From Castanea sativa (lineage: Eukaryota > Streptophyta > Magnoliopsida > Fagales > Fagaceae), in NCBI RefSeq assembly GCF_040712315.1, contig NC_134015.1, forward strand, positions 10,560,945 through 10,624,944: 64,000 nt of DNA. The letters are read 5' to 3'. Shown one piece after another: positions 1 to 50,584 of the stretch. Within the stretch, counting starts at the first letter, position 1, and each line of letters opens with the position of its first letter. A program made the position numbers and the translations under genes. Under the pieces are notes generated by a model that saw only the letters and a program-made list of their open reading frames with translations, made no database searches and was not told where the DNA came from.

Positions 1-2015
1 CGAAGATTGGCAAAAAGAGAGATTGCAGTGAACAAATTTCAAAGACAGTAAAAGGCCATTTTTACTTCAAAATTTGTTAAACTCTAGGGTTCATAGAGTC
101 CCATCTATCTCTGGATAGACTCATGAGAAAAAGGGGGAGGGGGTTATTGCTTATGGCACTCTCTTGTTTTATGCATACTCTCTAGAATAAAATAGTAGTA
201 ATAATAAAGAATTAGATAGTATTACCAAATCAATCACAATTTAAAACAATAATTTAAGCAAAAAAACCCAATAGCAGGCACTCCAGTGCCAGTGGCATAT
301 GCATCATTTCTGCTGATCCATTACAGGATATAAAAACACACCAGTATTCACTCCTTGAATGTCATCATCAAAGTCTATATCATGACTTGATAAGCAGTAT
401 CTTCCATCTGCGGTTGTATGTGCATATATCAAGCACAAATCGTTGAAGTTTATCAAGGTTTTGTTTCTGTATAACTGTGCCTCTGGGTGAACCTGCATGT
501 GTATAATGTCAAGTCACCACTCACTATGACACCAAAGGTATAGATCAAATCAAAACAATAACAAAACCAAAGCACCTTGATGTAAGCATCCCAAACATGA
601 TGACTGGCAACCACCATTTGTTTAGTATCATCCCATGAAAATCCATTCTGACCAAGTAGACTCTTTACATCATTGAATTGAGTCCACAAATTAGTGTAGT
701 GACTTTTCAAGGCCTTTTTATCATATGGGGTTCCAAAATGGCATTGAACGGTCAGCATATCAGTCCAAGCTTTTTTTTTTAATATATGGCCCATCCTATT
801 CCTCCTATGCACCTGATCTAACAAAAGATCAATAAAATAGCACTCCATTGCTGGTGTCCAGTTTGTCCTTGTACGATTGCTACTTGCAGGCGTTTGGGTG
901 CCCATTTCTTCCCCCTAAAACATTGAGACTATCATTCTAGTGATAAGGTCCCTTCCCATGCTATGCTTCCAATCCATAAACAACAAGTCAACTTTAGTCC
1001 TTAGCTATAGAGGTGGAAAATTCAAATTCACCAGAAATATCTGAAACCCATTAATAAGATTTGCATTCTTGTTTCAATTCATTTAACAATTCAAACTCAA
1101 ACTAATAAACACTTATAGCAAACACAGTGATTATACCAAAGAATTAGGATCCTCCAGAGTTCTTAGGCTAACTTCATCATGGAATTCCTAAAATCTTATC
1201 TATTTGTTTTGGAATGAGTTGGATTGCTTATGACACATCATCAATAATTTAAATAGATACCAAAATGGTGATAGTCAATATTTTATAAAACGTTGATACG
1301 TCGTAAAATATAATCCACTCCTTTAAAAATGAACGGATAAGATTTTAGGAACTCTGCACTAGAGTTACCCGGATATCTTAATACATATATTATTCTGAGC
1401 TTAAGTTCTACATGTTACCCATTTTTTTAGCTGCTTAGAAAGCTACAGAGAAAGGTGGACGATTTTAAATCCTAGATATTAAAAGATCATTGGGGGTCTC
1501 TCGGAAAATGAAAACCCAGAGTTTCATTAACAGAGTTTCTGCACTTTTTGCTTATATATAGCTAAATTAAGAATTCTATAATTGCAAAATAAAAATTCAA
1601 ACCTAAACCGGCTGTCAAAATGAAGATATTAAAGATAAACTACTATAAAATTCGAGCTCAAATTATACATACTAACACCTTGTCTAATTCTCGAGAAAAC
1701 TGATAGAAAATGAAGGAGAGGGGGAAAATATTCAATTATATGTGGTACACTGTATCGGGTTTTCATAAAAAAATCAAAACAGAATATCATTCCAACCATA
1801 GTTCCTTTTAATTATGCTTCCAATACGCAAAAGGATGAGTCAAGCCAAAAGTCCAAACATGTGTGCTTATGTGTTATGATTCAGAGAGGGAGAGTGTTTG
1901 GTACCTTTGAATTGTGGAGAGAAATCGCAGAGAGGGTGAGAAAGATACACTGTGGTTGCCGTTTGGCTGCTTTGAGAGATATACTCCTCTCTGTGGATTG
2001 CTATATCCTGCACCA
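1..2015 (-). CDS. 5' part of a Myb/SANT-like repeat gene, upstream copy (partial, runs off left edge)
   Basis: This is the first repeat unit of a gene closely related to the one at 15.4-24.1 kb. A noncoding 5' exon (about 1905-2015, donor after AATTCAAAG) is followed by a Myb/SANT-like exon (576-914, ATG at 905) and a short tail exon (342-492, starting VHPEAQ). The tail exon ends in phase 1 at a GT donor, so the next unit would lie left of the window. The Myb exon shows [13 protein letters not shown], then AWTDML, and ends VWDAYIK. Compared with the downstream copy it lacks 1 nt and 2 nt close together, which changes about four residues but restores the frame. No stop is seen in this unit. 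Members of this plant family resemble PIF/Harbinger-associated Myb-like proteins and L10-interacting Myb proteins; a nuclear DNA-binding role is inferred. Confidence 0.7.
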
Positions 2016-8900: not shown

Positions 8901-10930
8901 AACCATTTTGAGACAGTAAAGGTTCGAGTAACTCTGTGTCGTCATCAACATTTTGAGAATTGTGTTGGATGATAACGGAATTCTGAGGAGGACATATGCA
9001 TTCCACATGCACCCCCATCCTTGCTATCACAGGAGCATATTTTCTATTTCTACTGACCCAATGAGTGATTTTACATAAAATCTCAACATGATTCCGATCA
9101 CCTTGCATTCAAGTCTCTGAAATCCCTATGTACTTGGTTGTGAGGTTCATCGTAAAACCACAGATGATCACACTTCAAAGCATAAAAAACCCCCGAAACC
9201 ATGAGACGTTGCTTACGACTATCGGTAGAAATGTGGATATCAAAAAGACAATCAATTATATCATCACGAATAGAACTGTACTTATCATTATTAGCGTAAC
9301 TGTCCTTCAACGGAATTAGATGAAGAACAACACAAACAGCAATTGATGGAAACTCAGGACCAACCCAGAATGATATGGAACATTCAATGCTTTGATGATT
9401 GATCTAATTCGGAATCTTCTTTCCTGGTACCGTAATATCATATCTCTCTGCTAAATCAACCAGATATGAATCTAGAGTGGGAAAGGACTCATCTTCAATT
9501 GCATTGAACTTGGAGAGGGAGACCCAGGAAGAGCAATCAATCTGATTCGATAAATTGCGATGTGAATGCGAATCCATTAATACTTTGTGTTTCACACCTG
9601 AACATTTCATATTTGGTGAAAGCCCTAAATTTCTTCCAAAGTGCATGAAATTAGGAATTTTAAGAAATTGAAGTTTAGCAAATCTAGTAAATGTATTTGC
9701 AAAGGTAACCAAAATTGTTTCTATTATTACTTTAAGAGAGAGAGAGGGGTAGCTGAAGGATTAATTTTCTTAATGATTCTAAATTCAACGAGATGCAGTT
9801 TCGTGTATCTACTTGTCTTATACTTTCTGGAAGCTTTGGAATTTTCTTAAGGAACTTGGAATCGTGAAATACAAGCCAATTTAGTCTATTGAATCTGATA
9901 ATGCTTTCTCTAAGGTTCAAATCTTTACTCCCTAATAATAAACATTTCTGTGTGTGGGTGAAGCAAGAAGTCAACTTTTTAAGAAAATTCGACTTTGGAA
10001 AACAATATTTTAAAAAGCCACTATAGGAAATGCACGCTGCTGATTGCCTACTGATCCCCACGTCCTTTGGAAATTGGACATTACCATAAAGCAAGAGTTT
10101 GCGAAGATGTTGCAATTTATAAATGCTACTTGGAAGATGACACGAATAGAAATCGGAACCTATCTCTAATCATTCAAGTCCAGTGAGACTCCCAATTGAT
10201 GGAGGAAGCTCTCTAGTGGCAGTGTGCCTCACACTTAAATACTTTAAAATTTTCATTTCTTGTGGAATATTGGGAACCTTTTAACCCTTTTGCAATGACC
10301 AACATATAAATATTTAAGAGATTTCATCGCGATACAACTTAGAAGAATTTGAAGTTCAATGCAGCCCCAGAGATCCCAGCTTTCAAGCTTATCAAGACAT
10401 CCAATAGAGTCATGAATCTTGACTAATCTTCTACAATTTTGGAGATCCAATTTCTTTATGTTTGGGGTGGCACTCGATAAGTCGGGTAATTCCCTAATGT
10501 ATTGATTGTAATTGAAATTCATATATGCCAAGTTTTTGCATTGTATCCTCTATAGAAAAAGAAAATAAAAATTTTGACTCCAACAAACGTTATTAAAAAA
10601 TAGTTGAATAAAGTAATAATAATTTATAAATAAATAAATAAAAATTATTATACCTTGAAAAACTTGTCCAATGTAACCCGACTTTCTGGCATGTTGAGTG
10701 CAACGAGTTTTTGAGGATCAAAATTGGATGGTAAGGAAGACAAAGGAAATCCGGACCAATCAAGAACGCTTAATTCATTAGGAAAATATTTGAGACCTCT
10801 ACCAATATCTACATTACTAACCATGAGGAACTTGAGATTTTTCATCTTCTCAAAACATTTAGGTTCTAAATTCATCTTTGATGCTTCAGGTGTGCATATC
10901 ATTATGCCACGAATTTTTTCTAATCCATAA
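8857..10930 (-). pseudogene. LRR and C-terminal (C-JID-like) region of the TNL relic
   Basis: LRR-like segments include LKYFPNELSVLDWSGFPLSS and LKSLKYLY-type strands. The exon from 10549 begins after TTTCTATAG. Frame breaks near 10277, 10170, 9404 and 9107 split it. The post-LRR segment shows ITVPGKKIPN, SFWVGPEFPS and a DHLWFYDE motif. These are typical of the C-terminal jelly-roll region of TNLs. Confidence 0.8.
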
Positions 10931-11111
10931 TTGGACAAAGCATCGAGTCAATCATACTATACAATAAAATTCACTAAAAGTATAATGACGGTTAAAATTA
11001 AACAAGAACTAAACTAATAAACTTAAATTTTCTTCAACATTTAAATGGAAAATAATCACCACATTTGCCATTTGAAAAAAAAGGTAGAAAATGAACCAAG
11101 ATAATGCATAC

Positions 11112-12206
11112 CGTATTTTGGGTTAGTACTTTATGAACATCCTTATAACACCATAGCCTACTACGCTCTCTAGGCATTCGTAGTGATTCCCGTCGAATAA
11201 TGCGCCTACCCATTTGTTGTAGCAAATCATGCATCAACAATCTATCATATTGATCAATAGTTATTACACTCTTATCCATAAGTTTTTGAATTCCATAAAT
11301 TGGATGTAAATCACAAGCATTCAATATATTCATGACATACTCCTTAAAAAATCCCTTAAAGAAGCATGCAATATCAAGGAAAATATATTTTTCAGTTTCA
11401 TCCAATCCTTCATAACTTATTTCGAGTATTTTTGAATTTCTTCATTAGGAATTCTTTCATACTTATCTACTGCACTTCTCCACTGAGGTTTAGTTCTTCC
11501 ATTTAAATCAGCACCCATTATTACTAGAGCTAATGGGAGTCCCCTAGCATATTGTATAACTCTATTTGCAAGTTCCAAATAATCTTCTTTAGGTTTGTTG
11601 CTTTGGAAGGCATGCATGCTAAGGAGTTCCAGAGCTTCATCTTGATCTAATTCCTTAACCTCATAGGTTGAACAACTTTTTCTAAGAGTAGCTAACAAGT
11701 GTTTATCTCTTGTTGTTATAATGATTTTACTTCCAGAAGCAAACCAATTGCATCTTCCAAGCAAATTTTCTATTTGGATCCATTTATCAACATCATCAAG
11801 AACTAAAAGGATCCTCATAAATGAAAGTCTTTCCTTTATCATATTGATTCCTCTAGATTTGTTACCAACCTTTAAATTTATATCCCTTAAGATCTCAAGA
11901 AGAAGTGTCTCTTGTAGTTTGATTACACCAGCGTTTGTCCCTGATCTTTCTCTTAAATTTTCTAGATAACAAAATCCATCAAAATGATCACAAATTCTAT
12001 TAAAAATAGCTTTTGCGATTGTTGTCTTACCTATTCCACCAGGGCCATAGATACCTATTATATGACCATCATTTGACTCAATATCTGAAAGTATGGTCTT
12101 TACACGATAATTTATTTCAACTGGGTATCATGTGACAAACAACGGCGTGCGATTTAATTTAAAATTTGAGATCTCTTCAACAATTCCTTGGATAAATTCA
12201 AACTCA
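11112..12206 (-). pseudogene. NB-ARC exon of the TNL relic
   Basis: The acceptor GTTGCAG is followed by SEFEFIQGIVEEISNFKLNR, then a TGA at 12128-12130. After that the P-loop reads GPGGIGKTT, with kinase-2 at LLVLDDVD, RNBS-B at KIIITTRDKHLL and GLPLAL. The frame breaks near 11432 and resumes with YIFLDIACFFKG and the MHD-like MHDLLQQMGR. The nucleotide-binding motifs are otherwise well preserved, so loss of function looks recent. Confidence 0.88.
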
Positions 12207-12405
12207 CTGCAACTGTCATTCACATAACATGAAAACAATATATGATTTAGATTTTTATCATATATACACACACACAATTTAGAAAAAGAAAATAGAAATA
12301 TGAAAATGAACTAAATTTAAGATGTTCGGCTTGTGAATTAAATTTGAATAATCATCAAATAAAGTAAGTGGCATGTACAAAATCTATAACTATCATTATG
12401 TTAGC

Positions 12406-12431
12406 ATATATATATATATATATATATATAT
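12406..12431. repeat. (AT)n microsatellite
   Basis: A run of alternating A and T lies in the long intron of the TNL relic. Confidence 0.9.
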
Positions 12432-12860
12432 TAGTTTTAGGGTTCTAGACATAGTTGCCATGACGTATTGAGCATTTAATCATCAAGGTGGTATGGTAGT
12501 TCATTGGTTCAACCATTAGATGATTGACTCAACCGTTGTACTAATGATAAATTTATTTTAAATATAAACATATAAAAATAAATTAAAAAATAAAACAGAA
12601 GATAGACTATAAAAAGATGAACTTACATTCAATTTAAACATGAATATGTAGGAATTACTTAGATTGAAATTAATAGGATAGTATTGTTCATATATTGATT
12701 TTATATATGTTTATAGACTGAATAATAAGTTACTTGAATTGATCATTTGACTACTCATTTCAAGGTTTAAAAGCTAAAGACTTAAAAGACCATAAATAAA
12801 AGTGCATAATTGAAGGAAAGTATACTTATTAATTTGATATAAAAAAAAAAAAACATTTTT

Positions 12861-12964
12861 TTATACAAGATATAATTTCTATTTTAGCTTAATTTAAGTG
12901 TATATGTGTATAAAGCTCTCTCCTAGAGATTTGAACCCCGCACCAAAAGTGTGCGGTGGTAAAA
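12861..12964 (-). mobile_element. SINE-like element, family 1 (5' truncated)
   Basis: On the minus strand it carries a box B-like GGGGTTCAAATCTCTAGG, then an AGCTTTATACACATATACAC segment and a tail that becomes A-rich. The same order is found in the copies at 13.3 and 37.9 kb. The box A part is missing or very diverged. It lies in the TNL intron. Confidence 0.6.
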
Positions 12965-13308
12965 TAATTAACATTAAAGACCAAACGATTTGAATAAAAC
13001 CATGTGGTTCAGTATATTTTTTTAAAAACCATCAATTTTCATGATTTAATCAGCTTTTTGGTAGTGAAACTAACGTTTCTGTCATAACGTCCGGATTTTC
13101 ATATTATTTACCAATTTGACAGTTCAACCATTGTTTGACTCTAAAAAAAAACCATTGTTTTGGTACGATTATGATAACTGTACATTTAGCATAAAGTTGC
13201 AATGAAAATCTTTTTCTTTTTTTTTTGAGCGTGAGTTGCAATGAAAATCTAGTTACTGATAATTGAAACTAGTTACAACTTACAACTCATTTTTAATACT
13301 AGAACTAC

Positions 13309-13448
13309 CACCATGCACCTTTGACGTAATGGTCACTCTACAAGTATTAAGTGCTTGTGAAGTATGGGAGTAAGGGTTAGGGTTCAAGTTTCTAGGAAGG
13401 AGCTTCACACACATATACACTTCTTAAATTAGGCTAAAGTAGAATTTC

Positions 13449-13455
<7 letters not shown>
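13309..13455 (+). mobile_element. SINE-like element, family 1
   Basis: It has a tRNA-like head with a box B-like GGGTTCAAGTTTCTAGGAAG, then AGCTTCACACACATATACAC, then AGGCTAAAGTAGAATTTCTA and a TCTTT end followed by an (AT)n run. It aligns over its length with 37866-38004. It lies in the TNL intron in reverse orientation to the gene. Confidence 0.65.

Positions 13456-13487
<32 letters not shown>
13456..13487. repeat. (AT)n microsatellite
   Basis: An alternating AT run of about 32 bases directly follows a SINE-like 3' end. Confidence 0.9.
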
Positions 13488-13491
<4 letters not shown>

Positions 13492-13824
13492 CTAGAACTA
13501 AATTATTAAGGATATTTTTGAGAAATGTTTTTTAAATAAATAATATGTGGGAGAAACTCCTATTTAACGGTAAGGTAATTTTTTATTTTATTTTTTAAAT
13601 CTTTCTATTTCCACATTGCTAGCTAACTTCTATAGTAGTGTTTTCTCAACCAAAAAAAAAAAACCTTCTATAGTAGTGGATATGAAGAAAAAAAATCATT
13701 CATAATTTGGCCAAAAAACTAACACTGATAAATTAGTGGTAATTTTTGTTTAGCAATCAAATTACTTATCATAACAAACCAGTGAAACTCATAAAAAGTA
13801 CAATAGTTGTCATTAAATACACAC

Positions 13825-14315
13825 CTACGCTGGTAATGCCAACCAGATATATTTGCAGCTTCAAATAAAGCTTCCCTCCAGCTCTGCACCTTGTAATCCT
13901 TTAATTTTTCTTCATGTTTAGATAGTGCTTCTCCAAACTTTCCTTTTTGGTTACGTACTTCTAATGGATCTATGTTGTAAAAAACCAGTAGCATTAATTG
14001 GTCTTTTTTCTTACACTTAACAATCTTGACAAGTTCATCCAAGCACCATTTGGAAGATGCATAGTTTTCTGAGAATACAATTATTGAAATCCTTAAACTT
14101 TCAATGACTTTGAGAAGTCCTACAGAAATTTCTTCTCCCCTTTGAAGATTATTATCAATAAAGGTATTAATACCCCATTGACATAAAGTATTATACAAAT
14201 GACCTACAAAACCAATACGGGTATCTTCACCTCTAAAACTCAAGAAGACATCAGATTTCTTAGGTTGGTGGGTGAAAGAAGTAGATGAGGCTCCTTTGCA
14301 TGTCACAAGAGCCAT
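13825..14315 (-). CDS. TIR domain exon of the TNL relic
   Basis: This open exon of 163 codons plus 2 nt starts at the ATG at 14315 and ends at a GTGTGT donor. It contains the TIR hallmarks DVFLSFRGEDTR, GLLKVIESLRISIIVFSENY and WCLDELVKI. The catalytic Glu of TIR NADases would fall in the WCLDEL segment. Phase 2 matches the NB-ARC exon acceptor at 12206, so the splice is intact. Because the NB-ARC exon hits a stop about 25 codons in, a transcript would give little more than a TIR-only protein. Confidence 0.85.
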
Positions 14316-15290
14316 CAAGATTTATGAGGAAACAGCTGTAAAGATCTGAAAGGAGGAGAAAGAAAACTGTGAAGGGATTGCAATATAACTCAGGCAAGTG
14401 AAAGACAAATTAGGAAGAGGGTGAATGCAGGCAAGAGGAGCCTTTAAAGGTGGCTTGCTTTCGGTGTGCCCAGCAACTCTTTGAACTTTAAAGTCCCATA
14501 TTGATGCTTTTTACCTTGCTTTTGGTGTGACTCTCTGAACTTTCCAAGAACCACAGATGCTTTTTTTTTTTTGCAATATCATGCAAGTATCCGTGTGAAA
14601 CCTAAAATAAATCTTGGACCTTTCTAAGCAACATACTGGTCATTGTGGTCAAACAAAATGGTAATTTCCTATCTTATTTGTCATTCGCAAGTGAGATGTA
14701 ATAAACAAATGGTAATAAAAGAAGGTAGCCATCTTCCCTGCAATCCAACAAAGTCGTTTTTGACTTTCTGGAAATATTAAACTTTCCTTTGGTTATTCGC
14801 AGAGGAGAAAAAAGAAAAAGTGAAGAAAGTAGAATCCACTCAGCACGATAATGTTTTTATCAAAAATCTCACTCAAAAAGGGAAAGGGGATGCGTGAAAA
14901 GCCCATTAAAAGATTTAGCGTATATAGATTTATTGTACATCAATATGCTAGCTAAATGGCAAAAAATCTTTCCCTTGTAGATAAAATTTTATGCCCTAAC
15001 ATAGACAGAAATAAGTCCATTTACTGCCATATATGTATCAAAAGATATAAACGTGCAACACATGTTAAAGCTTCAACCTAATTTTGTTTTTGGGAAAAAT
15101 ATCGATTGAGAATGTATTTTTCATCAACATTCCAGGCAATCAACCATAAATCCAGCTACAACCAACCATCACCATGCGCAGGACCTCTCAGCAAAAGCAA
15201 ATTCAATTCCCTTTTTTTTTTTCCAATTTCAATAAGGAAATCATACAGGAAATTGCATTGAAAAATGCCTTTGCATTAATATAGGATCTG
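14316..15290. other. upstream region of the TNL relic
   Basis: This lies between the TNL start and the 3' end of the Myb gene. It holds an imperfect tandem repeat at about 14456-14570: two copies of a TTGCTTT(C/T)GGTGTG unit followed by TGAACTTT and then GATGCTTTTT. No exon is seen. Confidence 0.5.
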
Positions 15291-19900: not shown

Positions 19901-21856
19901 AGTGTCCTCAAGAATACAGGTTCCCTCTAAAGGTCCTCCTTTTAATACAAGAAATGAACCTCACCCATCTTGATCTGTATGATATCATCTTCAAAGTTTC
20001 TCCCTTGCAATAAATGACTGCAATGTCCATTGCTTACTGCATTTCCAAATATCAATTTCAAGTCGCAAAAGTTTAGCAAGGTCTTCCTACGATAAGAATG
20101 CGCATCTGGGTGTGCCTACATCAGCAATTGTACGCATGAAATACAGTAAAAATGAATACCAATAACCAAATATATATGATAGTGTACCTTGATGTAATTA
20201 TCCCATAGATAATCATCTGCGGATATCTTTTGTTGAATTTCATCCCAAGAAAACCCCTTTACCTCAAGTAGACTCTTCACATCAGTATAATATTTCAATA
20301 ATTTCTTAAAACGGTGTTTTAAGAAAGTCTTTCCATATTTAGAGCCAAATTTTCCATTGAATAAGGTGAGCATATCATTCCATGCTTGTTTCTTGAATGT
20401 GTTACAGATCTTATTGCCTTTTTTAAGTTGGTCCAGCAAAAGCTTGACAAAATATCAGTCCATGGCTGGTGTCCAATCTATTTTTGAATGCCCTTTACTT
20501 GCCGGTACAAGGCTATTCATTGCAACACCTAATCAGTAAAAGCAGTTTCTATTCATTAAAAACAGATTATACTTGAATACTCATTACTACAAGCTAACAT
20601 AAAACATATGTAATTTCAATCAATCTTGCTGCACCCAGTTCCTAGCTATCAAATGAAGTAAGATATGCAACTTCCCAAAAAATAAACCATCAGGACCAGT
20701 TCAATCAAGTGTTCACACAAAGCCAAGCACAATGTGCTCATTTCTCTGCAACATTTTTTTTTTCTTTTTTCCGTGGATAGGAATAAAGGTGCTTGTTTCC
20801 CCATAATACAGACAGGTTTGCAATACAACACCAACTACAAGTCTTATCATTAGGTACTACTTAGGTCATAATTGGCTAAGCTCAAAATCAGTAGTAACCA
20901 CAATTCTGATTCTTGTGGAAAGCAGACCATGGTTGACTGCCCAAAGATTGGCTAAAAGAGAGATTGCAGTGTACAAATTTCAAAGATGGTAAAAGGCCAT
21001 TATTACTTCAAAATTTATTAAATTCTAAGGGGCATAGAGTCCCATCTATCTCTGGATGGACTCATGAGAAAAAGGGGGAGGGGGTTGTTGCTTATGGCCC
21101 TTTCTTGTTTTATGCATACTCCCTAGAATAAAATAGTAGTAATAATAAATAATAAAGAATTAGATAGTATAACCAAATCAATCCCAATGAAAAATGGTAA
21201 TTTAAGCAAAAAAACCCAATAGCATACATTCCAATACCACTGGCATATGCATCATTTCTGCTGATCCATGACAGGATATAAAAACACACCAGTATTCACT
21301 CCTTGAATGTCATCATCAAAGTCTATATCATGACTTGATAGGCTGTATCTTCCATCTGCTGTTGTATGTGCATATATCAAGCACAAACCATTGAAGTTCA
21401 TCAAGGCTTTGTTTCTATAGAATTGTGCCTCTGGGTGAACCTGCATGTATACAATGTCAAGTCACCACTCACTATGACACCAAAGGTATAGATCAAATCA
21501 AAACATTAACAAAACTAATGCACCTTGATGTAAGCATCCCAAACATGATGACTGGCAACCACCATTTGTTTAGTATCATCCCATGAAAATCCATTCTGAT
21601 CAAGTAGACTCTTTACGTCATTGAATTGAGTCCACAAATTAGTGTAATGACTTTTCAAGACCTTTTCATCATATGGGGATCCAAAATAGGCATTGAACAT
21701 GGTCAGCATATCAGTCCAAGCTTGTTTGTTGAATGTATGGCCCATCCTATTCCCCCTATGCACCTGATCTAATAAAAGATCAATAAAATAGCACTCCATT
21801 GCTGGTGTCCAGTTTGTCCTTGTACGATCGCTACATGCAGGCATTTGGGTGCCCAT
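15362..21856 (-). CDS. six-unit Myb/SANT-like repeat gene with three in-frame stops (pseudogene or exon-skipping gene)
   Basis: The gene consists of six modules. Each has a Myb/SANT-like exon (341, 341, 341, 341, 338 and 338 nt) and a tail exon (151, 151, 151, 133 and 151 nt; the sixth is fused to the C-terminus). Introns inside modules are phase 0 and introns between modules are phase 1. Each Myb exon carries a WT-x3-MDRYFI-like start, an AW-x3-M centre, a GFSWD-like motif and a VW-x2-YIK end. Tails start HPDA and contain LIYGN. ATG 21856 is chosen because the upstream exon is out of frame with it and looks noncoding. In-frame stops: TGA 20455-20457 (unit 2), TAG 18100-18102 (unit 4) and TGA 17951-17953 (unit 4 tail). 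The architecture resembles Arabidopsis multi-repeat Myb/SANT-like proteins. A nuclear DNA-binding role is inferred from family and from the KRKRK motif near the C-terminus. Confidence 0.75.
16909..16942. repeat. (GA)n microsatellite at a splice donor
   Basis: This run of 17 GA units lies in the intron after unit 5 of the Myb gene and touches the GT of its donor site on the minus strand. Confidence 0.95.
16944..17506 (-). CDS. unit 5 of the Myb/SANT-like gene
   Basis: The Myb exon (17169-17506) starts EFSEGAG and contains [14 protein letters not shown] and [10 protein letters not shown]. The tail exon (16944-17094) starts VHPDARTYR. Both are open. The donor of the tail exon is GT followed at once by a (TC)n run, because a (GA)n microsatellite occupies 16909-16942. 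It is a weak donor compared with the GTAGGT and GTGAGG of other units. Confidence 0.8.
17845..18395 (-). pseudogene. unit 4 of the Myb/SANT-like gene (TAG in Myb exon, TGA in tail)
   Basis: The Myb exon (18055-18395) is open through [14 protein letters not shown] and FSWDET, then meets TAG at 18100-18102 where CAG or AAG is expected. The tail exon (17845-17977, 133 nt, 18 nt shorter than the other tails) reads EHPDAKPY, then TGA at 17951-17953 where Arg is expected, then a normal LCLIYGN. Splice sites are intact, and skipping both exons keeps the frame. Confidence 0.8.
18770..19339 (-). CDS. unit 3 of the Myb/SANT-like gene
   Basis: The Myb exon (18999-19339) starts [11 protein letters not shown], runs through [15 protein letters not shown] and [11 protein letters not shown], and ends VWNSYTK. 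The tail exon (18770-18920) starts VHPDAQSYR and ends before GTAGGT. No stop is present. The decayed fragment at 5.6-6.3 kb matches this unit best. Confidence 0.85.
19965..20528 (-). pseudogene. unit 2 of the Myb/SANT-like gene (TGA in the Myb exon)
   Basis: The Myb exon is 20188-20528 and the tail exon 19965-20115 (starts AHPDAHSYR, ends before GTGAGG). The Myb helix start reads WTPAMD, then TGA at 20455-20457 where other units have Arg (CGA), then YF. One C-to-T change explains it. The rest of the unit is open and both splice sites are intact, so the unit could be skipped as a 492-nt frame-neutral block. Confidence 0.8.
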
Positions 21857-21864
21857 TTCTTCCC
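21290..21864 (-). CDS. unit 1 of the Myb/SANT-like gene
   Basis: The Myb exon (21524-21864) follows a TTGTAG acceptor and contains the likely start ATG at 21856 (MGTQMPACS). It ends AYIK before GTGCAT. The tail exon (21290-21440) starts VHPEAQ and ends in phase 1 before GTGTGT. Both exons are open, and the unit is closely matched by the copy at 342-914. Confidence 0.85.
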
Positions 21865-22733
21865 CTACAACATTGAGACTATCATTCTAGTGATAGAGTC
21901 CTTTTACATGCTAAGCTTCCAATACATAAACAATAAGTCAACCTAGTCCTTAGCTGTAGAGGTGTAAAATTCAAATTCACCAGAAATATCTGAAACCCAT
22001 TAATAAGATTGCAATCCTGTTCCAATTCATTTAACAATTCAAACACAAACTATTGACCACTGAAGCTAAAACACTGATTATACCAATGTTTAGAATCCTC
22101 CAGAGTTCTTAGGCTAACTTCATCATGGAATTCCTAAAATCTTATCTATTTGTTCTGAATTGAGTGGATTGCTTATGGCACATCATCAATAATTTAAATA
22201 GATACCAAAATGGTGATAGTCAATATTTTCTTAAAATGTACGTCATAAGTCTAATCCACTCATTTAAAAATGAATGTAAAATATTTTAGAAACTCTATAA
22301 TTGCAAAATAAAAATTCAAACCCAAATCAGCTATCAAAATGAAGATAATAAAGAGATACTACAGTAAAAATCCAGCTCAAATTATCCATAATAACACCTT
22401 GTTTAATTCTCGAGAAATCCAATAGAAAATGAAAGGGGGAAAATATTCAATTATATGTGGTACACAAAAGGATGAATTAAGTCAAAATTCCAATACAAGT
22501 ATGACAAAGGTCTGCACGCTGTTTCAGCATGCTTAATTCTTTCAAAAATCAAGAGTACATTTTAAATGAGTGATGCTACAAATTTTACAACATAAGTCTT
22601 ACAAATGGATATGTCACCTTTTAAACAAACACACACAAACAAAAAGTTCAGAAATTCATATATTATGTTGTTGTGGCACTAAACACATTCATTATCGTTT
22701 CCATTTGCAAGCCTTTATAGTAAATTTAGCAGT

Positions 22734-22951
22734 AGCTTTAGTGTTTTCCCAATTTAAATACTACTTAGTTGATTAAATGAAGAAACTACACTAAAAAAAC
22801 ACACTAATCCAAGCTAATATTCAAAACACTAGTTGATTAAATGAAGAAACACTAGCTTTAGTGTTTTCCCAATTTAAATACTACTTAGTTGATTAAATGA
22901 AGAAACTACACTAAAAAAACACACTAATCCAAGCTAATATTCAAAACACTA
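22734..22951. repeat. perfect tandem duplication, 120-bp period
   Basis: The 98 bases at 22734-22831 recur without mismatch at 22854-22951, separated by a shorter duplicated piece (GTTGATTAAATGAAGAAAC). Perfect identity suggests a very recent event or an assembly artefact. Confidence 0.9.
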
Positions 22952-24079: not shown

Positions 24080-25526
24080 TTCAATGATATATTAGTACTC
24101 TAAGAAAGGATGTCTCATATGTGTGAGAGTGGTCTACAAAGGTTTTTTTTTTTTTTTCCAAACTAGTTGAGAAAAAAACTCTTCAAGCTCTTTTTTTTTT
24201 TTTATTAAATGTAAATTTTGAAAATTTGACCATTAGATTGTATGTTCTTTATGTTATTAACATACAAATTTTGAAATTTAGACATTTAATTTTCTTGAAA
24301 TTTTGCATGCATGGGAGAATAATAAGAACATGTAATCTAATAATTAAATTTTCAAAATTCATATTTAATATATATATATATAACAAGTTTGAAAAGTTTT
24401 AAACATTTTCCATTATCTTATGAGTCACATTTAAGATTTATAAATTTTTTTATTTTGCAATACGTGCTGGGGAATGGAGAATAGTAATACATATTTGAAA
24501 AAATTTTGCAACAAACTTGGTAGTAGTCTAAGTCTACTACTCCACTCAATATCTTTTTATTAGATGTGAATTTTGATAAATCCATCTTTGAATTATATTT
24601 TCTTTTCATATCCTCTATGTTTGCAAAATTTTTAGAATATCAAAATTTTATAACTATGTTATCAATCAAATATTAAATTTCAAGTTTTGTAGTCTAAAAT
24701 TATACATAAAATATAGGTTTATAGATTGAAAAAAAAAATTCTAATTGACATGAAATTTTATGTGTGTTAAGAACATTAAGAACGCGCAATTTAATGGTTA
24801 GATTTTTGAAATATATTACTATGTTAATTTTTTAAATAAGAGTTATAACCTTAAAGTACAGTCAAATTTATAGCCAAACTTTGTCCATACATATATATCT
24901 CGTGCATAAGATATTTTTTTATAGTCTTATTATCAATTGTAAATCAATATGTCCTTAGATAAAGTATATTACACTTTTTAATTAAATTTAATGCAACTAG
25001 ACGATGGAAAAATTGAATTTAATTAAGGAAGTTAGTATATTGCATTTGCACCTAAGAATGTGTATTTAAATTTTGTCCATACAGTAAGGTTAAAATGTCT
25101 CCTCTTATAAAGAAAACGATTTTTCTTAGCAATTGGCTTTGGTCAATGCATTTTGTTTTACAAAAAACATTTTATACAATAATACTAAAGCCTTCCGAGA
25201 GGTTAAGGCAGGAGGAATCCGCTTGGAAGAATATTGACATGGTCCTATGTTTGTAAATATTTTATGAATTCTTTTAGTTAAAGAATAAAGTTTGTAATTT
25301 AAGATTACAACTCCTCCTTATCCAAAAAAAAAAAAAAATTATAACTCCTACTTTAAAAATAAACATAATTATATATTTTGAAAATTTAGTCATTAGAATA
25401 CATGTTTTTTATGTTTTTAATACATGTAAAATATTTTCATGTTAATTGGATTTTATTTGCTATTCGATTTATACTCTTATTTTTGAATAATTTTAGATTA
25501 CAAAAATTTGAAATTTAAACATTTAA
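24080..25526. other. AT-rich intergenic DNA with a dispersed repeat
   Basis: No exon is seen. The stretch resembles the 398-bp element at 50187-50584 in several places (motifs around GGATATAAGAAGAAAATGTAAT and ATTCACATCCAATAAAAA, partly inverted). It is read as decayed copies of that MITE family. Confidence 0.45.
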
Positions 25527-25883
25527 GGTCCGTTTGGATAGAGTTGAAAACTGAAAGCTAAAAACTGAAAAATGAAAACATTGTAGCAAAATTATTTTTA
25601 AATGTGTGAATAGTACCATGGGACCCATTTTTAATGAAAAAGTTGCTGAAAAGTGAGGTTTGTGGCTCCCGTGAACAGTGCACGAGACCCACTGATGTGC
25701 AGAAAAGTCAAAAATCACGGCTAAAAAAAAAAAAGAAAAGAAGAAAGGTGTGAAACGCCAGCTTGGCACTGTTCATAAGCCCCTTGCACTGTTCAGTGCA
25801 AAAGGTGCTGTCCAAGAAAAAAAAAAGGCTGAAACACGTTAAACGCAAACCGTGAACACAATAATTTGAATCCAAACGCCACC
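25527..25883. mobile_element. MITE, GTTTGGAT-terminus family, copy 1
   Basis: The left terminus is GGTCCGTTTGGAT and the right terminus in reverse is GGTGGCGTTTGGAT. Internal motifs GTGTGAATAGTACCATGGGA and CACTGTTCA are shared with the copy at 39.66-40.00 kb. It is flanked by TTAA on both sides. It lies inside an older dispersed repeat. Confidence 0.75.
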
Positions 25884-27830
25884 TTAATTGATGATATAAT
25901 TTTTTATTTTTGATATTTTGTAAATTTTGCAAACATAGAGGATATAAGAAGAAAATGTAATCTAATGGTAGATTTATCAAAATTTACATCCAATAAAAAT
26001 ATGACAAAATTTGGCCAGAATCTTAGTTATAGCCTAAGACTTTAAATTCCACTAGAAAAAAATTAACATGACTACATATTTTAAAAAAAATTTGAATTGT
26101 ATTTTTTTTATGTTCTTAACACACATGTCAAATTTTGTGCTAATCGGATGTTATTTACTATTTAATATATAAATTAGGAAAAATTACACTTTGCCCACCT
26201 ATGATTTGCCCAAAAATCACTTTGCGTAACCGTGATTTAAAAATAGGCATTTTACACACCTCAGGAATACTCTGTTCGTCTCCAGTTACCCACCTTTATT
26301 AAAAATATTGGTAAATTTGTATTTTTACTACCTTTTTATGTCTCTCTTCTGTCAAAACATTAAAAAAAAACTAAAAAATCAAGAGAAAAAAAGATCTAAA
26401 AGCTACAAAAAAAAACTTTTTTTTTATGCATAATTTTAGACTACAAAAACTTAAAATTTAAATATTTAATTGATGACATAGTTATTTATTTTTTATCTTT
26501 TAGAAATTTTGCAAGCATAAAAAATATAAGAAGAAAATATAATTTAATAGTAAATTTGTCAAAATTCACATCCAATAAAAAGATATTGAATAGAGTTGTA
26601 GCTAAACTTTGTCCATAAAAAGATTTTGAAAGGAATTGTAGACTTGGGCTATAACTAAATTTATAACCAAACTTTATCCTTAATTAAATAAAGTTGCCAA
26701 TTTATCCAGGGAAAATTAAATTCACCTCATGTTTGCTTATGAAAATTTTGTTCAGAAGCTTTAACTGTTTTTGTTCACAAGCTTTAATTTTAAACCTTTT
26801 TTTTTCTTTTTTGCTTTCATTAAGTAGGGAAGAGGATTTGAATCCAAAGTCTCCTCAGTGGGAGAACAGGACAATGCTACTATGCTACACAGCTCTTGGC
26901 TTGAATGTTACATTTCAACCCCCAAGATTTGAATTTAAATGAAATTGTTATGCTATCATTTAAAGATTTATTAATAATTTTATTTCAATCCAAAACTTTA
27001 GAAGTTAAAAATGTAGCATTTAAATATATATATATATATATATATATACATGGGACCAAATCGTGAAAGAATCAAACTTAAAAGAATAAGTTATACTTGA
27101 AAATTTGTCCACATAAAATTTGTTAATTTGATTTTAGAGGACACCATGCTCCAAGTTTATAATTCCTATCTTAATAGGTAGAAAAAAGAAAGGAAGATAG
27201 ACAAAGTAGAGCAGTGAAAGATAGGATTTGAACCATAGATACGGAGCGTTATAAAAGTTGCTATTGGGCTATCGCCTATTACTTGAACCCAATTTCAGAA
27301 TTTTAAACCACCAATCTATCATTAGGATAACATTGTTGCAAAATTTTGTCAGTATAAAATCCATGTTCCAATCGTAGCATGTATCTCCCATTGAATTGCA
27401 ACCTCGTCTATGCTCCATCTCATACATGAGAAAGAAGCCTATGACTATGAGTGGCAAAACAAGCCATCATGAAAATCCCACTCACGATGAAATGCATATA
27501 CAAAACAAAATTATTGGCAATTAATTCCACGCTTTGGCTAGTCAGCCTAGAAACTAGAAAGGCCTACAAAAATAAACATGTGTTTTGATAGGTAATCTAT
27601 TCGGTAACTGAGTTTTATAGGTATGCCTTATGTGAGAATGGGGCAAAAAATTGTGGGGCAGGAGCAAGAAACAGATAACTGGCAACAATATTTTGTGGGT
27701 CTAAAATTGCAATCAATATTCATTTTCTGTCTCTAAAACATGCAACTTTGCCTGTTTGTGACCTAATTCGGCTGACCTTTTGTATCCCCATATAAAAAAA
27801 GGCTGAAGTTACAGCAACAACATACACAAG
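25884..27830. other. intergenic DNA, decayed repeats
   Basis: It contains further decayed copies of the 50.2-kb MITE family (25884-26160 and 26440-26680), a MITE-like end near 26170-26330, and an (AT)n run at 27024-27048. A tRNA-like stretch near 27190-27270 (minus strand, box B-like GGTTCAAATCC) may be a SINE remnant. No gene is supported. Confidence 0.4.
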
Positions 27831-41578: not shown

Positions 41579-43543
41579 TTACATGATACTGCAACTACCA
41601 GTATTCTCATCACTAAACATGTGAGTGTAAGGATCGGGCTGCGCAGGGTGAAGCATGGGCGGCCCCGGCATGTAATTAATGGCCGGATGCGGCCGCCCAT
41701 ACATCATCGGTTGGTACATGTCATTGCCATTTGCCCTTTGTTGATTCATCATCATCATAGCCATGTATTGTTGTTGATTGTACGGATTGCCTGGCCCCAT
41801 TCCAGGTCCCATTCCTTGATAATATCCACTGTTCATTGCTGTGGTTGCAGGTAGACCTTGCACCGCAGGATAAGCTCCCATTTGGCCCATAGGATAATTA
41901 CCCATGTTGCCCATTGGATTTCCTTGTCTCATCTGGCCCATTGGATAACTACCCATGTGGCCCATTTGACCTCCTTGGCCCATTTGGCCCATAGGATAAT
42001 TACCCTTAAGGCCCATTTGGCCCATTTGGTCCATTTGCCCTCTTGGGGCCATTTGACCAACATTTCCACCTCCACCTCCACCACCACCACCCCCACCACC
42101 ACCACCACCTTTGTTTCCCTTGCCATGATTAGTGAAAGCAACATCAATGTCATGGAAGTCATTTTTCTTTTTGTTACTTTCATGGAACCCATCATTCTTG
42201 GCTCCACCTTTCTTGCCTCCATTGCCATTATTTTTTCCACCACCACCACCCTTAGTACCATGATTATTGGTACCCTTGTCAGTACCACCCTCTTTTTTGC
42301 TACCACTCCTACCAAATCCTAGCAATCCACCTAGAAACCCACCACCACTTTTGCCACCTTTTTTTTCTCCTCCACCACCTTTGTTTTGTTTCCCTCCCTT
42401 CTTATTCCCGCCGCCGCCGCCACCTCCACCACCACCTTTCTTCCCTCCATTGCCATTCTTACTATCCTTATTTCCACCCATACCACCCTTCACATCTAAA
42501 GGTATATCAATAACACCACCTTTCTTAGCATTTCCACCACCCCATTTATCATTCATGGGAGGCCCATTCATCGTAAAATTAGGCCCATATGGCCCATGGC
42601 CTTTACCCATTGGAGGCACCATCTTGTTGTTGGGTAAATGGTGGCCTTGAGCAAACTCATAATCACCATCATCAAACTCCTCATCATCAAATTCATCGTC
42701 AAATTCATCAAACTCATCACCAAATTCGTCAAACTCATCATCAAATTCATCCTCAGGAAAACTGAACTTGACAGATTTCTGGTCTTTAATGGGCACCTTC
42801 AGATCTTTAGCACCTTTCATTTGGTGTTGTGGTTGTTGGCCATGGCCACCCTTTTGGTCCTTCCCACCCTTCTGAGACTTGTTGTCTTTACCCCCTTTTC
42901 CGTGCTCAAATTGCATATTCTTGAACTGGTTATTGAGTTGGTTTTGGTTGTAGTTTGAACCTTTTTGAGGTCCCCATAGCTCTGCATGTTTCCCTGACTT
43001 CTCCAACTTATTTATGAGTTTAACTGGATCAACAACTCCTTTCACAGTCACCCTGCCTTGCTCTGCATCTATGTTGGTAGAATAAACTCCTACACAGAAA
43101 CAAAAGTAACAAGAGCCTAAATAAAAACTATATACACCCAATTAAATTGTACATACATAAAATTACAAAGTCATACTAAAAAATCACATACTAGAATTGA
43201 AATTTAAGACATAGAACTTTAATTCTGTAAGAAAAATCAGATAATAAAGTACATACCATCAATTTTCTGCAATAGTTTCTTTACTTTCTGCTTACATCCT
43301 TCACAGTGTATATTCACTCTAAGCACACAAGACTGCAAGGAAAAGCAACCCACAAACAACTTAAAATGACTTGTAAAAACCAAATTTTTACTAGGAAAGA
43401 AGAAGAAAAAAAAAAGAACATATCAATTGAGAAACAGTGGAAGAAATGAATAAAGGGTCCTAAAAGAGCTTCATTTCAGAACATGAAACATGAAAACATT
43501 TAGAATGGCGTACCTGCATCTTCATGACATCTTGTTTATTCAT
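41579..43543 (-). CDS. heavy-metal-associated isoprenylated plant protein (HIPP)
   Basis: Three exons (43543-43514, 43332-43257 and 43089-41579) give 538 aa in one frame. The HMA fold is at residues about 11-75, with the metal site MNIHCEGC-like as [14 protein letters not shown] (CxxC) and [17 protein letters not shown]. An acidic run of Asp, Glu and Phe follows (about residues 150-185). Then come Gly-Lys repeats, a poly-Gly run, a Met-Gly-Gln-rich section with a repeated MGQMG motif, and the C-terminal CSIM. CSIM is a CaaX box for farnesylation, so membrane attachment is predicted. Such proteins bind metals or partner proteins in stress and development. The size and Gly-rich tail fit the HIPP32-34 type, but I do not assign a member. 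Confidence 0.92.
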
Positions 43544-45316: not shown

Positions 45317-45326
45317 ATTCAGTATC
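45317..45326. repeat. left 10-bp target duplication of the foldback element
   Basis: ATTCAGTATC immediately precedes the element terminus GAGTCTTTTGG. The identical sequence follows the other terminus at 46952-46961. Confidence 0.92.
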
Positions 45327-45910
45327 GAGTCTTTTGGCTAAATATTGTAAAAAATGAAGTTTTTTGTTGTTATAGCCACTGTTCAAAGTTATTTAGCAAA
45401 ATGAGGAAAGAGAATGAATTTCGGCAACAGCGTTGCCGAAATTGCATAAAAAAGTATGAGAGAGAAATAAATTTGCAGGTGATGGCAGGATTTGAATTTC
45501 GGTAATCCCATTACCGAAATTCCTGCTGCCCAAACCATTACCCGAGTGAGTGCCCAAATAAAAACAATTGTGGCAATGCCATTGACGAAAATGGGAAAAA
45601 AAAAAAAAAAAAAAAAACCAATTGAGGTGCCATTGCCGAAAATGAGAGAAAAGAAAAAAAAACCAATTGAAGTGCCATTGCCGAAAATGGGAGAAAAGTA
45701 AAAAAAAAAAAAAAAAAGTCAATTGTGGCAATGGCATTGCCGAAAATGGGGGAAAATATTTTAAAAAAAAATCAATTGTGGCAATGGCATTGCCGAAAAT
45801 GGGGAAAAAAAGTTTAAAAAAAAAAAAATCTATTGTGGCAATGGCATTGCCGAAAATGGGTGAGAAAAAAAAATTGTGGCAACCAAGTCGCCGAAAATGG
45901 AGGGAAAAAA

Positions 45911-46085
45911 AATGCTTCGTCCACAACATTTTTCACAACAAATTACAAGTGGTTAGTTGTTATTGGTTTAAATTTAAACTTAATACTAAGATAACTTTTG
46001 TGCCCCAATAATAACAATCAGTAACAACCTGCTAGTTAGGATTTGTTGTAAAAATATTGTGAAAATATTATAGACATATCATTTC
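45911..46085. mobile_element. nested MITE in the left arm
   Basis: It is related to the solo element at 49801-49971 by its ends (AACATTTTTCACAACAAAT and TTGTTGTAAAAATATTGTGA). The matching copy in inverted orientation is at 46233-46397. Confidence 0.65.
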
Positions 46086-46232
46086 TCAAAAAAATTGTGG
46101 TGCCGAAATAGAAGAAAAAAAAAGTGGCAAATTGTTTTTTTTTTCCCTCTATTTCGGCAATGCAATTGCCACAAAACAATTTGCCACTTTTTTTTTTTTT
46201 TTTTTTTCTATTTTGACACTACGATTTTTTTT

Positions 46233-46397
46233 AGAAATGATACATCCACAACATTTTTACAACAAATCCTAACTGGCAAGTTGTTACTGATTGTTATTAT
46301 TAGGGCACAAAAGTTATCTTAGTATTAAGTTTAAATTTAAACCAATAACAACTAACCACTTGTAATTTGTTGTGAAAAATGTTGTGGACGAAGCATT
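46233..46397. mobile_element. nested MITE in the right arm
   Basis: This is the inverted counterpart of 45911-46085, with a handful of substitutions and a short end difference where TTGTGGATGTATCATTT replaces the left-arm sequence. Its presence in both arms means the arms were copied after the insertion. Confidence 0.65.
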
Positions 46398-46951
46398 TTT
46401 TTTCCCTCCATTTTCGGCGACTTGGTTGCCACAATTTTTTTTTCTCACTCATTTTCGGCAATGCCATTGCCACAATAGATTTTTTTTTTTTTTTTTTACT
46501 TTTTTTTCCCCATTTTCGGCAATGCCATTGCCACAATTGAATTTTTTTTTTTAATATTTTCCCCCATTTTCGGCAATGCCATTGCCACAATTGAATTTTT
46601 TTTTTTTTTTTTTTTTTTTTTTCCTTTTCTCTCATTTTCGGCAATGGCACCTCAATTGGGTTTTTTTTTTTTTTTTTTTTTTCCCATTTTCGTCAATGGC
46701 ATTGCCACAATTGTTTTTATTTGGGCACTCACTCGGGTAATGGTTTGGGCAGCAGGAATTTCGGTAATGGGATTACCAAAATTCAAATCCTGCCATCACC
46801 TGCAAATTTATTTCTCTCTCATACTTTTTTATGCAATTTCGGCAACGCTGTTGCCGAAATTCATTCTCTTTCCTCATTTTGCTAAATAACTTTGAACAGT
46901 GGCTATAATAACAAAAAACTTCATTTTTTGCAATATTTAGCCAAAAGACTC

Positions 46952-46961
46952 ATTCAGTATC
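46952..46961. repeat. right 10-bp target duplication of the foldback element
   Basis: ATTCAGTATC directly follows the terminus CCAAAAGACTC. Confidence 0.92.
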
Positions 46962-49790: not shown

Positions 49791-49800
49791 TTACGTAAAA

Positions 49801-49971
49801 AGAAATGCTACCTCTATAATATTTTCATAACAAATTTTAATTAGCACATTATTGTTATAAGTTTTTAATTTGAATTCACTATTGAAATTATTTTGTCATC
49901 TACTAGTAACAGCGAGTAACAACTTGTCAATTAAAATTTGTTGTGAAAATATTATGAATATAACATTTTTC
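49801..49971. mobile_element. MITE, solo copy of the nested family
   Basis: The terminal inverted repeats pair AGAAATGCTACC...ATATTTTCATAACAAATTTT with the reverse of the right end. It is flanked by TTACGTAAAA and TTACCTAAAA, a 10-bp duplication with one mismatch. Confidence 0.65.
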
Positions 49972-50186
49972 TTACCTAAAAGATAATATAATAATAAAAG
50001 AATAGGTAATATTCACAGTACGCTTAGGTTTAGGTTTAATATCTATTCATCTTTTGGGTTTAATAATAGCACACTAAGTGAAATAGCGGCAACATGGAAA
50101 GCTAGTAGTGGGAAAAGCTCAACAGTCAAGATTCAATATGGAAAATCTGATACTCGGTCCAATCTAATTTGGTGTTATTTGTTTTA

Positions 50187-50584
50187 AGGATAAATTTTAG
50201 TTACAAAATTAGTTGTAGTATAATGGTACAACTTTACTTAATAAAATAAACATTATTATATATTTGAAAAATCTAACTATTGAATTGCATGTTTTTTACG
50301 CTCTTAATACACATATTGAATTTTGTGTCAATTAAATATTATTTATTATTTATTTATAAGTTTATATTTTATGCATAATTCAAAACTACAAAAACTTGCA
50401 ATTTAAACAATTTTATTGATGATATAGTTATGGATTTTTAATTTTCTAGAAATTTTGTAAGCATGGAGGATATAAGAAGAAAATATAATCCAATGGTAGA
50501 TTTGTCAAAATTCACCTTCAATAAAAAGATATTAAGTAAGTTTGTAGCCTTAGGTTACAACTAATTTTGTAACTAAACTTTGTT
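50187..50584. mobile_element. MITE, 398 bp, 9-bp TSD
   Basis: The left end AGGATAAATTTTAGTTACAA pairs with the right end read in reverse, AACAAAGTTTAGTTACAA. The pairing continues through AATTAGTTGTA. It is flanked by TTTGTTTTA at 50178-50186 and 50585-50593. Decayed relatives fill much of 24.1-26.7 kb. Confidence 0.75.

What the first reader, a model, noticed from the sequence alone, without database searches (positions are those of the whole stretch)
45317..46961. A 1.6-kb foldback element made of arrayed palindromes, with an exact 10-bp target duplication
Seen directly: termini GAGTCTTTTGG / CCAAAAGACTC, flanks ATTCAGTATC on both sides, and two arms of about 800 bp that are inverted copies. 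Each arm is itself an array of GGCAATGGCATTGCC-type palindromes spaced by A runs. The 9-11 bp target size is known for Mutator-like elements. A nonautonomous foldback of this build would give a long hairpin if transcribed and could seed small RNAs or a new miRNA locus. I know of no named family with this array.
Basis: partly seen in the sequence, partly recalled or inferred. Interest (0 to 1): 0.78.

Follow-up and report, generated by a model that had tools for sequence, protein, structure and literature searches.

The report
Oak-family foldback transposon with palindrome arrays
A real 1.6-kb jumping-gene insertion in an oak-family plant genome, built as two mirror-image arms packed with small palindromes; it belongs to a large family for which the paper searches turned up no name, but to a kind of mobile DNA that is already known.

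Summary
Window 45327-46951 (1625 bp) is an inverted repeat that ends flush in GAGTCTTTTGG / CCAAAAGACTC, with an exact 10-bp direct repeat ATTCAGTATC on both sides. The arms align with 750 of 772 letters identical. The host is a Fagaceae plant. The core resembles a hAT-type MITE and has a separate relative at 49798-49977. Reading one arm as a pseudo-protein found similar modules in many public contigs: 26 hits, then 368 with a profile. Of 129 fetched, 127 carry the unit with at most one substitution, 63 in two or more reading frames (34 exactly), so this is repeated DNA, not a gene. Best reading: a non-autonomous foldback DNA transposon, probably Mutator-like, moved in trans and prone to make a hairpin RNA. 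The Mutator assignment rests on target-duplication size and architecture only; no transposase was found. Host copy number, empty sites and small RNAs could not be tested. An unnamed family of a known kind.

The parts
45317..45326 (.). left copy of the 10-bp target-site duplication ATTCAGTATC
   Evidence: exact direct repeat, only two occurrences in the window
46952..46961 (.). right copy of the 10-bp target-site duplication ATTCAGTATC
   Evidence: exact direct repeat flush with the inverted terminus
45327..46951 (.). whole foldback element, 1625 bp, termini GAGTCTTTTGG / CCAAAAGACTC
45327..45598 (+). left terminal segment, carrying two palindromes
   Evidence: 269 of 272 letters identical to the right arm
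46680..46951 (-). right terminal segment, mirror of 45327-45598
45417..45443 (.). palindrome AATTTCGGCAAC-3 nt-GTTGCCGAAATT
45494..45522 (.). palindrome GAATTTCGGTAAT-3 nt-ATTACCGAAATTC
46756..46784 (.). right-arm counterpart of the 45494 palindrome, with one change
46835..46861 (.). right-arm counterpart of the 45417 palindrome
45565..45905 (+). left array: seven units of GGCAATGSCATTGCC type (two shortened, one divergent), spaced by A runs
46396..46713 (-). right array, same unit order, one unit fewer than the left
45912..46087 (+). left MITE-like core with its own imperfect inverted ends
   Evidence: similar to the separate repeat at 49798-49977 (71% over 168 columns); limits set by eye
46235..46403 (-). 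right MITE-like core, mirror image
   Evidence: 72% identity over 174 columns to 49798-49968
46088..46230 (.). centre with further, degenerate array units (46149-46177), around the hairpin loop
49798..49977 (.). separate MITE-like repeat related to the core; possible 8-bp duplication TACGTAAA / TACCTAAA (7 of 8) by eye

Best explanation
This is one insertion of a multi-copy, non-autonomous foldback DNA transposon family of a Fagaceae plant, most likely mobilised in trans by a Mutator-like transposase. Shown: the element lies between 10-bp target duplications, its arms are inverted copies with the same module order (terminus with two palindromes, palindrome array, MITE-like core), the two ORFs scanned match no Pfam family, and relatives with the array exist in many public contigs. 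Inferred: the repeated half-site TTTCGGYAAY / RTTRCCGAAA is a cluster of transposase-binding sites that marks the ends; a MITE entered the array before the two arms became inverted copies of each other; and read-through transcription would give a long double-stranded RNA cut into 21-24-nt siRNAs that silence the family.
For: Exact flush 10-bp duplication. Inverted arms 750 of 772. 17 half-sites inside and none outside. Array found elsewhere through a pseudo-translation: 26 hits, 368 by profile. Of 129 fetched, 127 carry the unit with at most one substitution and 103 exactly; 63 carry it in at least two reading frames with at most one substitution, 34 exactly; controls 0 of 120 unrelated proteins and 0 of 2580 shuffles. 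68 of 129 show the order interior-array-terminal palindromes by my expressions. One hit (P0132) matches the terminus in translation (FLQYLAKRL) and continues into other sequence. MITE-like core mirrored in both arms and present as a separate repeat in the window. Hairpin -919.9 kcal/mol for 1301 nt; 822 of 1436 21-mers have an exact reverse complement in the element, after dropping 169 A/T-run words. Host: best named hits Quercus rubra 88%, Quercus suber 86%, Castanea mollissima 80%.
Against: No Mutator-like transposase is linked to these ends. The 26- and 20-letter exact patterns and the P0138 scans found no other DNA copy (viral and prokaryotic collections), and the host genome could not be searched. 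The source taxa of the public contigs are not given, so host copy number is unknown. Only 1 of 129 relatives reaches the terminus by the expression, and that one, P0132, is one of the two (with P0177) without the standard unit: no single relative was seen with both the standard unit and the terminus. Arm divergence is uneven: 3 of 272 at the ends against 13 of 208 in core plus centre (p 0.003; against core alone p 0.050), so a single clean inverted duplication is not the whole story. No evidence of transcription or small RNA was available.
Confidence: 0.76

Rival explanations
1. A foldback element of a superfamily other than Mutator (for example hAT, P/Galileo-like or an undescribed one), whose transposase makes 10-bp duplications.
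For: Foldback architecture recurs in unrelated superfamilies: Galileo is a P-type element and Tm1 is Mutator-like (abstract and first part of discussion read). No transposase was found here. The core looks hAT-MITE-like.
Against: The MITE-like core is internal and not at the ends.
Confidence: 0.2
2. The palindrome arose in place after insertion, by inverted duplication of a simple element, so this foldback form has never moved.
For: Core and array are mirrored unit by unit, consistent with an inverted duplication.
Against: The inverted repeat ends exactly at both target duplications, and relatives elsewhere have a similar module order in one arm (68 of 129), so array-bearing arms are a family trait. 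Whether both arms, or the doubled core, occur in other copies was not seen.
Confidence: 0.15
3. Assembly or read artefact (foldback read).
For: Long palindromes are a known assembly hazard (recalled).
Against: The direct 10-bp repeats flank the palindrome and the outer flanks do not fold (57 of 200); the arms differ at 22 aligned letters and by a whole unit.
Confidence: 0.02
4. A microRNA or siRNA locus kept by the host for regulation, with the transposon only as its origin.
For: Strong hairpin. Mutator-type MITEs are reported as the main source of MITE-derived miRNAs in eudicots (PMC12550479, passages).
Against: No Rfam match in the window at gathering score. The extended duplex and A-run arrays look like an siRNA source rather than a miRNA precursor (judgement). 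No small-RNA data.
Confidence: 0.05

Closest known systems
Tm1, Mutator/Foldback family of root-knot nematodes (PMC3169594; abstract, first part of results and first part of discussion read)
   Same: Composite inverted repeats that hold variable numbers of a short repeat; 9-bp target duplications; mostly non-autonomous; a second element nested inside one copy.
   Different: The Tm1 repeat is a 13-15-bp tandem repeat, not a palindrome array; its extreme ends are not inverted; a copy encoding a MULE-like putative transposase is known; the host is an animal.
MuTAnT of Medicago truncatula (PMC4486113; passages read)
   Same: Plant Mutator-like family with almost identical long inverted repeats made of modules, forming a foldback; sizes from about 200 bp to over 1.6 kb.
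   Different: Termini GGGG and TA-microsatellite targets with 9-nt duplications; no palindrome array mentioned in the passages read; autonomous partner known.
FARE foldback family of Arabidopsis (original paper not held; known here from citations)
   Same: Plant foldback with long palindromic repeats at its ends, classed with MULEs.
   Different: Sequence not compared.
Tandem-TIR MULEs of tomato and other plants (PMC3310237; abstract and first part of results read)
   Same: Extra inverted-repeat modules inside a mostly non-autonomous MULE with a target duplication.
   Different: Duplicated whole ends rather than an array of ~15-bp palindromes.
Galileo of Drosophila (PMC3688188; abstract)
   Same: Long repetitive inverted repeats with several transposase-binding sites identified in them: the model used here for the array.
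   Different: P-element superfamily; 7-bp duplications (recalled).
Mu killer of maize (PMC3440606; abstract)
   Same: An inverted duplication of a Mutator element, proposed to make a hairpin RNA that silences the family.
   Different: Carries transposase gene sequence and is a single locus; no coding part was recognised in the present element.

Membership tests
Mutator-like (MULE) transposons | 8-11-bp target-site duplication, mostly 9-10 (range recalled) | tested here: met
   10 of 10 exact for this copy; other copies not seen as DNA
Mutator-like (MULE) transposons | long terminal inverted repeats | tested here: met
   outer 293 nt at 99%
Mutator-like (MULE) transposons | MULE transposase in the element or in an autonomous partner with the same ends | not testable with these tools
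   no Pfam match in the two element ORFs scanned; the host genome search did not complete
Foldback-type elements (a structural class) | inverted repeats that make up nearly the whole element and contain internal repeats | tested here: met
   772 aligned letter pairs, i.e. 1544 of 1625 bp, with an internal array
Foldback-type elements (a structural class) | several dispersed copies with variable repeat number | tested here: inconclusive
   129 fetched relatives with 0 to 11 detected units, 119 of them with 1 to 3; their taxa and loci are not given and only single arms are seen
Tm1 | about 14-bp motif C tandem repeats and asymmetric terminal motifs A1/A2 | tested here: not met
   termini are symmetric GAGTCTTTTGG and the array unit is a ~15-bp palindrome, compared by eye with the motifs
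MuTAnT | GGGG termini and (TA)n targets | tested here: not met
   GAG terminus and ATTCAGTATC target, compared
hAT-type MITE (the core only) | short element with inverted ends and 8-bp duplication | tested here: inconclusive
   core and solo copy have imperfect own inverted ends; the solo copy has a possible 7-of-8 duplication by eye; the core sits in A runs where none can be read
microRNA precursor | match to a known miRNA family or discrete small RNAs | tested here: inconclusive
   no Rfam match at gathering score; small RNAs not available

The most novel reading that the evidence does not exclude
A large plant transposon family that captured a MITE of another superfamily into its binding-site array before it spread, and whose doubled-core foldback copies act as natural self-silencing hairpins, making siRNAs against the shared termini and also against the unrelated MITE family.
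Probability: 0.12. Interest if true: 0.6.

Novelty: new member of a known kind. Interest (0 to 1): 0.36.

Why it matters
If the family is confirmed in Fagaceae genomes, it gives a clean case for asking why foldback ends grow arrays of short palindromes (transposase-binding specificity against replication slippage), and whether an element that carries a second family's MITE in its arms makes cross-silencing siRNAs. For annotation it is a reminder that such elements yield spurious phenylalanine-rich predicted proteins in databases.

Tried and rejected
Exact-pattern scans of viral contigs for the terminus (20 letters) and the array unit (26 letters) found nothing. P0138 against viral and genome contigs: 79 and 317 stretches matched a pattern, none confirmed by tblastn; these collections are viral or prokaryotic, so this says little. 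Rfam and tRNA scans of the window were empty. No MULE domain among 20 ORFs given to Pfam out of the 32 listed; the other 12 were not scanned. Searching papers for the motif letters gave 8 papers, each holding only the short TTTCGGCAATG; from their titles none concerns transposons (listing only). Considered and dropped: that the arms code for a protein (across the hits the same DNA unit is read in different frames); that the MITE-like core is a late insertion private to this copy (an interior expression, modelled on the translated core end, occurs somewhere in 56 of 129 relatives in the form and in 71 of 129 in the wider form, and stands before the array and terminal palindromes in 68 of 129; that it is the same core was read from translations, not tested on DNA). 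My palindrome counter does not count palindromes with 3-base loops, so it missed the four long ones; those were read and checked.

Full report
WHAT IS THERE. The sequence from 45327 to 46951 is a 1625-bp inverted repeat whose ends read GAGTCTTTTGG and CCAAAAGACTC. Directly outside each end stands ATTCAGTATC (45317-45326 and 46952-46961), 10 of 10, and this 10-mer is found nowhere else in the window on either strand. A flush match of this length has a chance of about 2.9e-6 from base composition; at this spacing 2 of 62,355 positions have identical 10-mers, the target duplication and an A-rich word at 21280. The left and right halves align with 750 of 772 aligned letters identical and 72 internal gap letters, 37 of which are one array unit that the right arm lacks.

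ANATOMY. Each arm runs from the outside inwards as follows. (1) A terminal segment of about 272 bp with two palindromes, AATTTCGGCAAC-3-GTTGCCGAAATT and GAATTTCGGTAAT-3-ATTACCGAAATTC on the left; the right-arm copy of the second has one change. (2) An array of seven units in the left arm and six in the right, centred on GGCAATGSCATTGCC and separated by A runs; on the left two units are shortened and one is divergent (the right arm counted by eye). (3) A core of about 175 bp with its own imperfect inverted ends, related at 72% over 174 columns (right arm) and 71% over 168 (left arm) to a separate repeat at 49798-49977; by eye that separate copy has a possible 8-bp duplication with 7 of 8 letters matching. 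(4) A centre with degenerate array units. The array therefore goes on past the core, which suggests that the MITE-like core entered the array. The half-site TTTCGGYAAY occurs 17 times in the element and not once in the rest of the 64-kb window. As RNA, 45500-46800 folds into one long hairpin of -919.9 kcal/mol (the tool gives no shuffle control above 1000 bases).

ARTEFACT? Unlikely. A foldback read would mirror the flanks too, but the flanks do not fold (57 of 200 letters agree, about chance) and the short repeats outside are direct, not inverted. The arms differ at 22 aligned letters.

HISTORY OF THE ARMS. A second alignment, with the centre cut differently, gives 23 substitutions, of which 16 are transitions and 7 transversions. 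By segment: terminal 3 of 272, array 7 of 270, core 7 of 171, centre 6 of 37. Terminal against core alone gives Fisher p 0.050; against core plus centre p 0.003. The centre alignment is weak, so this is a hint only: either the ends have been homogenised (gene conversion or selection for matching ends) or the inner arms are older. Because the mirrored core and the unit order are shared, the two arms go back to one ancestral arm (inference).

HOST. The window holds a TIR domain, NB-ARC and Roq1-like winged-helix pieces of a resistance gene, Myb/SANT-like ORFs, TAXi-type aspartic-protease pieces and an ORF with a weak heavy-metal domain match. Fagaceae is well supported; the species is not settled.

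A FAMILY. The host genome search did not complete (nine tries), so I used an indirect route. The phenylalanine-rich stop-to-stop frame through the left arm (45393-45932, minus strand) was used as a query. It found 26 predicted proteins at E up to 0.01, all from ENA contigs without names. An alignment of these with the query found 368 at E up to 0.001 among the 7980 candidates scored, of which the best 120 are listed. The 129 distinct relatives listed by the two searches (P0121-P0249) were all checked; the other hits were not seen. Of the 129, 127 contain the translated array unit with at most one substitution and 103 exactly; 63 contain it in at least two of its three reading frames (FGNAIATI, SAMPLPQ, RQCHCHN and variants) with at most one substitution, 34 exactly. 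None of 120 unrelated proteins (the TIR-domain hits) and none of 2580 shuffled sequences contains the unit. The two without a unit are P0132 and P0177. In 68 of 129 the order interior-array-terminal palindromes can be read with the expressions. With other expressions 124 of 129 match a terminal-palindrome expression, 56 a narrower interior expression, and 1 the terminus itself; the wider interior expression matches 71. The one that reaches the terminus, P0132, holds FLQYLAKRL as does the end of the window's arm and then goes on for nine residues into other sequence. It lacks the standard unit; by eye it has units that resemble the divergent innermost unit of the window's left array (HFQQLGCHN against HFRRLGCHN). 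So the evidence that array and terminus travel together outside this window is indirect. The modules are repeated, diverged, non-coding DNA present in many contigs. In which genomes is unknown: the records carry no taxon, so I cannot give a copy number for the host, nor say whether the contigs are genomic or transcript assemblies.

MECHANISM. The commitment: a non-autonomous element that lost or never had coding capacity and is moved by a transposase of an autonomous relative that recognises the ends. Shown are the ends, the duplication, the arms and the array family. Inferred: the half-sites are binding sites for that transposase. The parallel is Galileo, where binding sites were identified in the tandem repeats of long inverted ends (PMC3688188, abstract). 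Also inferred: a transcript through the element would be double-stranded and feed siRNA production, as proposed for Mu killer in maize (PMC3440606, abstract). In this element 822 of 1436 21-mers have an exact reverse complement inside the element (169 A/T-run words were dropped first), so the substrate would be good; expression is untested.

COMPARISON. Foldback ends with internal repeats or modules are known in Mutator-like families: Tm1 (PMC3169594), MuTAnT (PMC4486113, passages) and, through citations there, FARE of Arabidopsis (paper not held). [quoted passage not shown] So arrays, palindromes, foldback form and nested elements are each known. The combination of a palindrome array with a mirrored MITE-like core, and a named family with these letters, did not come up in eight paper searches, which cover open-licence papers only. 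Repbase and similar libraries were not available. The verdict is an unnamed family of a known kind.

WHAT SPEAKS AGAINST ME. The Mutator assignment rests on one copy's duplication length plus long ends. Terminal conservation in relatives is almost unseen. The uneven arm divergence does not fit one simple event. The separate MITE-like repeat is only about 72% similar. The link between the interior of the relatives and the window's core was read from translations only.

Noticed in passing
window 3-1355 and 20944-22296: A 1.36-kb direct duplication at 91% identity that includes a Myb/SANT-like ORF; weaker copies of the ORF region lie at 17-20 kb. Pfam matched Myb_DNA-bind_3 in the two of these ORFs that were scanned.
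   Followed up: no
window 9404-14321, minus strand: Pieces of a TIR / NB-ARC / winged-helix (Roq1-like) resistance gene; best named relatives of the TIR part are in Quercus.
   Followed up: partly
window 24285-26602 and 50185-50581: A dispersed repeat in several copies and both orientations at about 73-85% identity; not identified.
   Followed up: no
window 22733-22951: A 120-bp unit in a 1.8-copy tandem duplication with 100% matches.
   Followed up: no
window 41579-43141, minus strand: A 520-aa glycine-rich stop-to-stop frame with a weak heavy-metal-associated domain (below Pfam's cut-off); the foldback element lies about 2.2 kb upstream of it.
   Followed up: no
window 45317-45326: The target duplication ATTCAGTATC also stands inside the printed Tm1 motif C of nematodes (CGATTCAGTATCCGC). 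Taken as coincidence, since here it is host target DNA.
   Followed up: no
database proteins P0121-P0249: Predicted proteins in public collections that are translations of this non-coding repeat in different frames, a source of spurious gene calls.
   Followed up: yes
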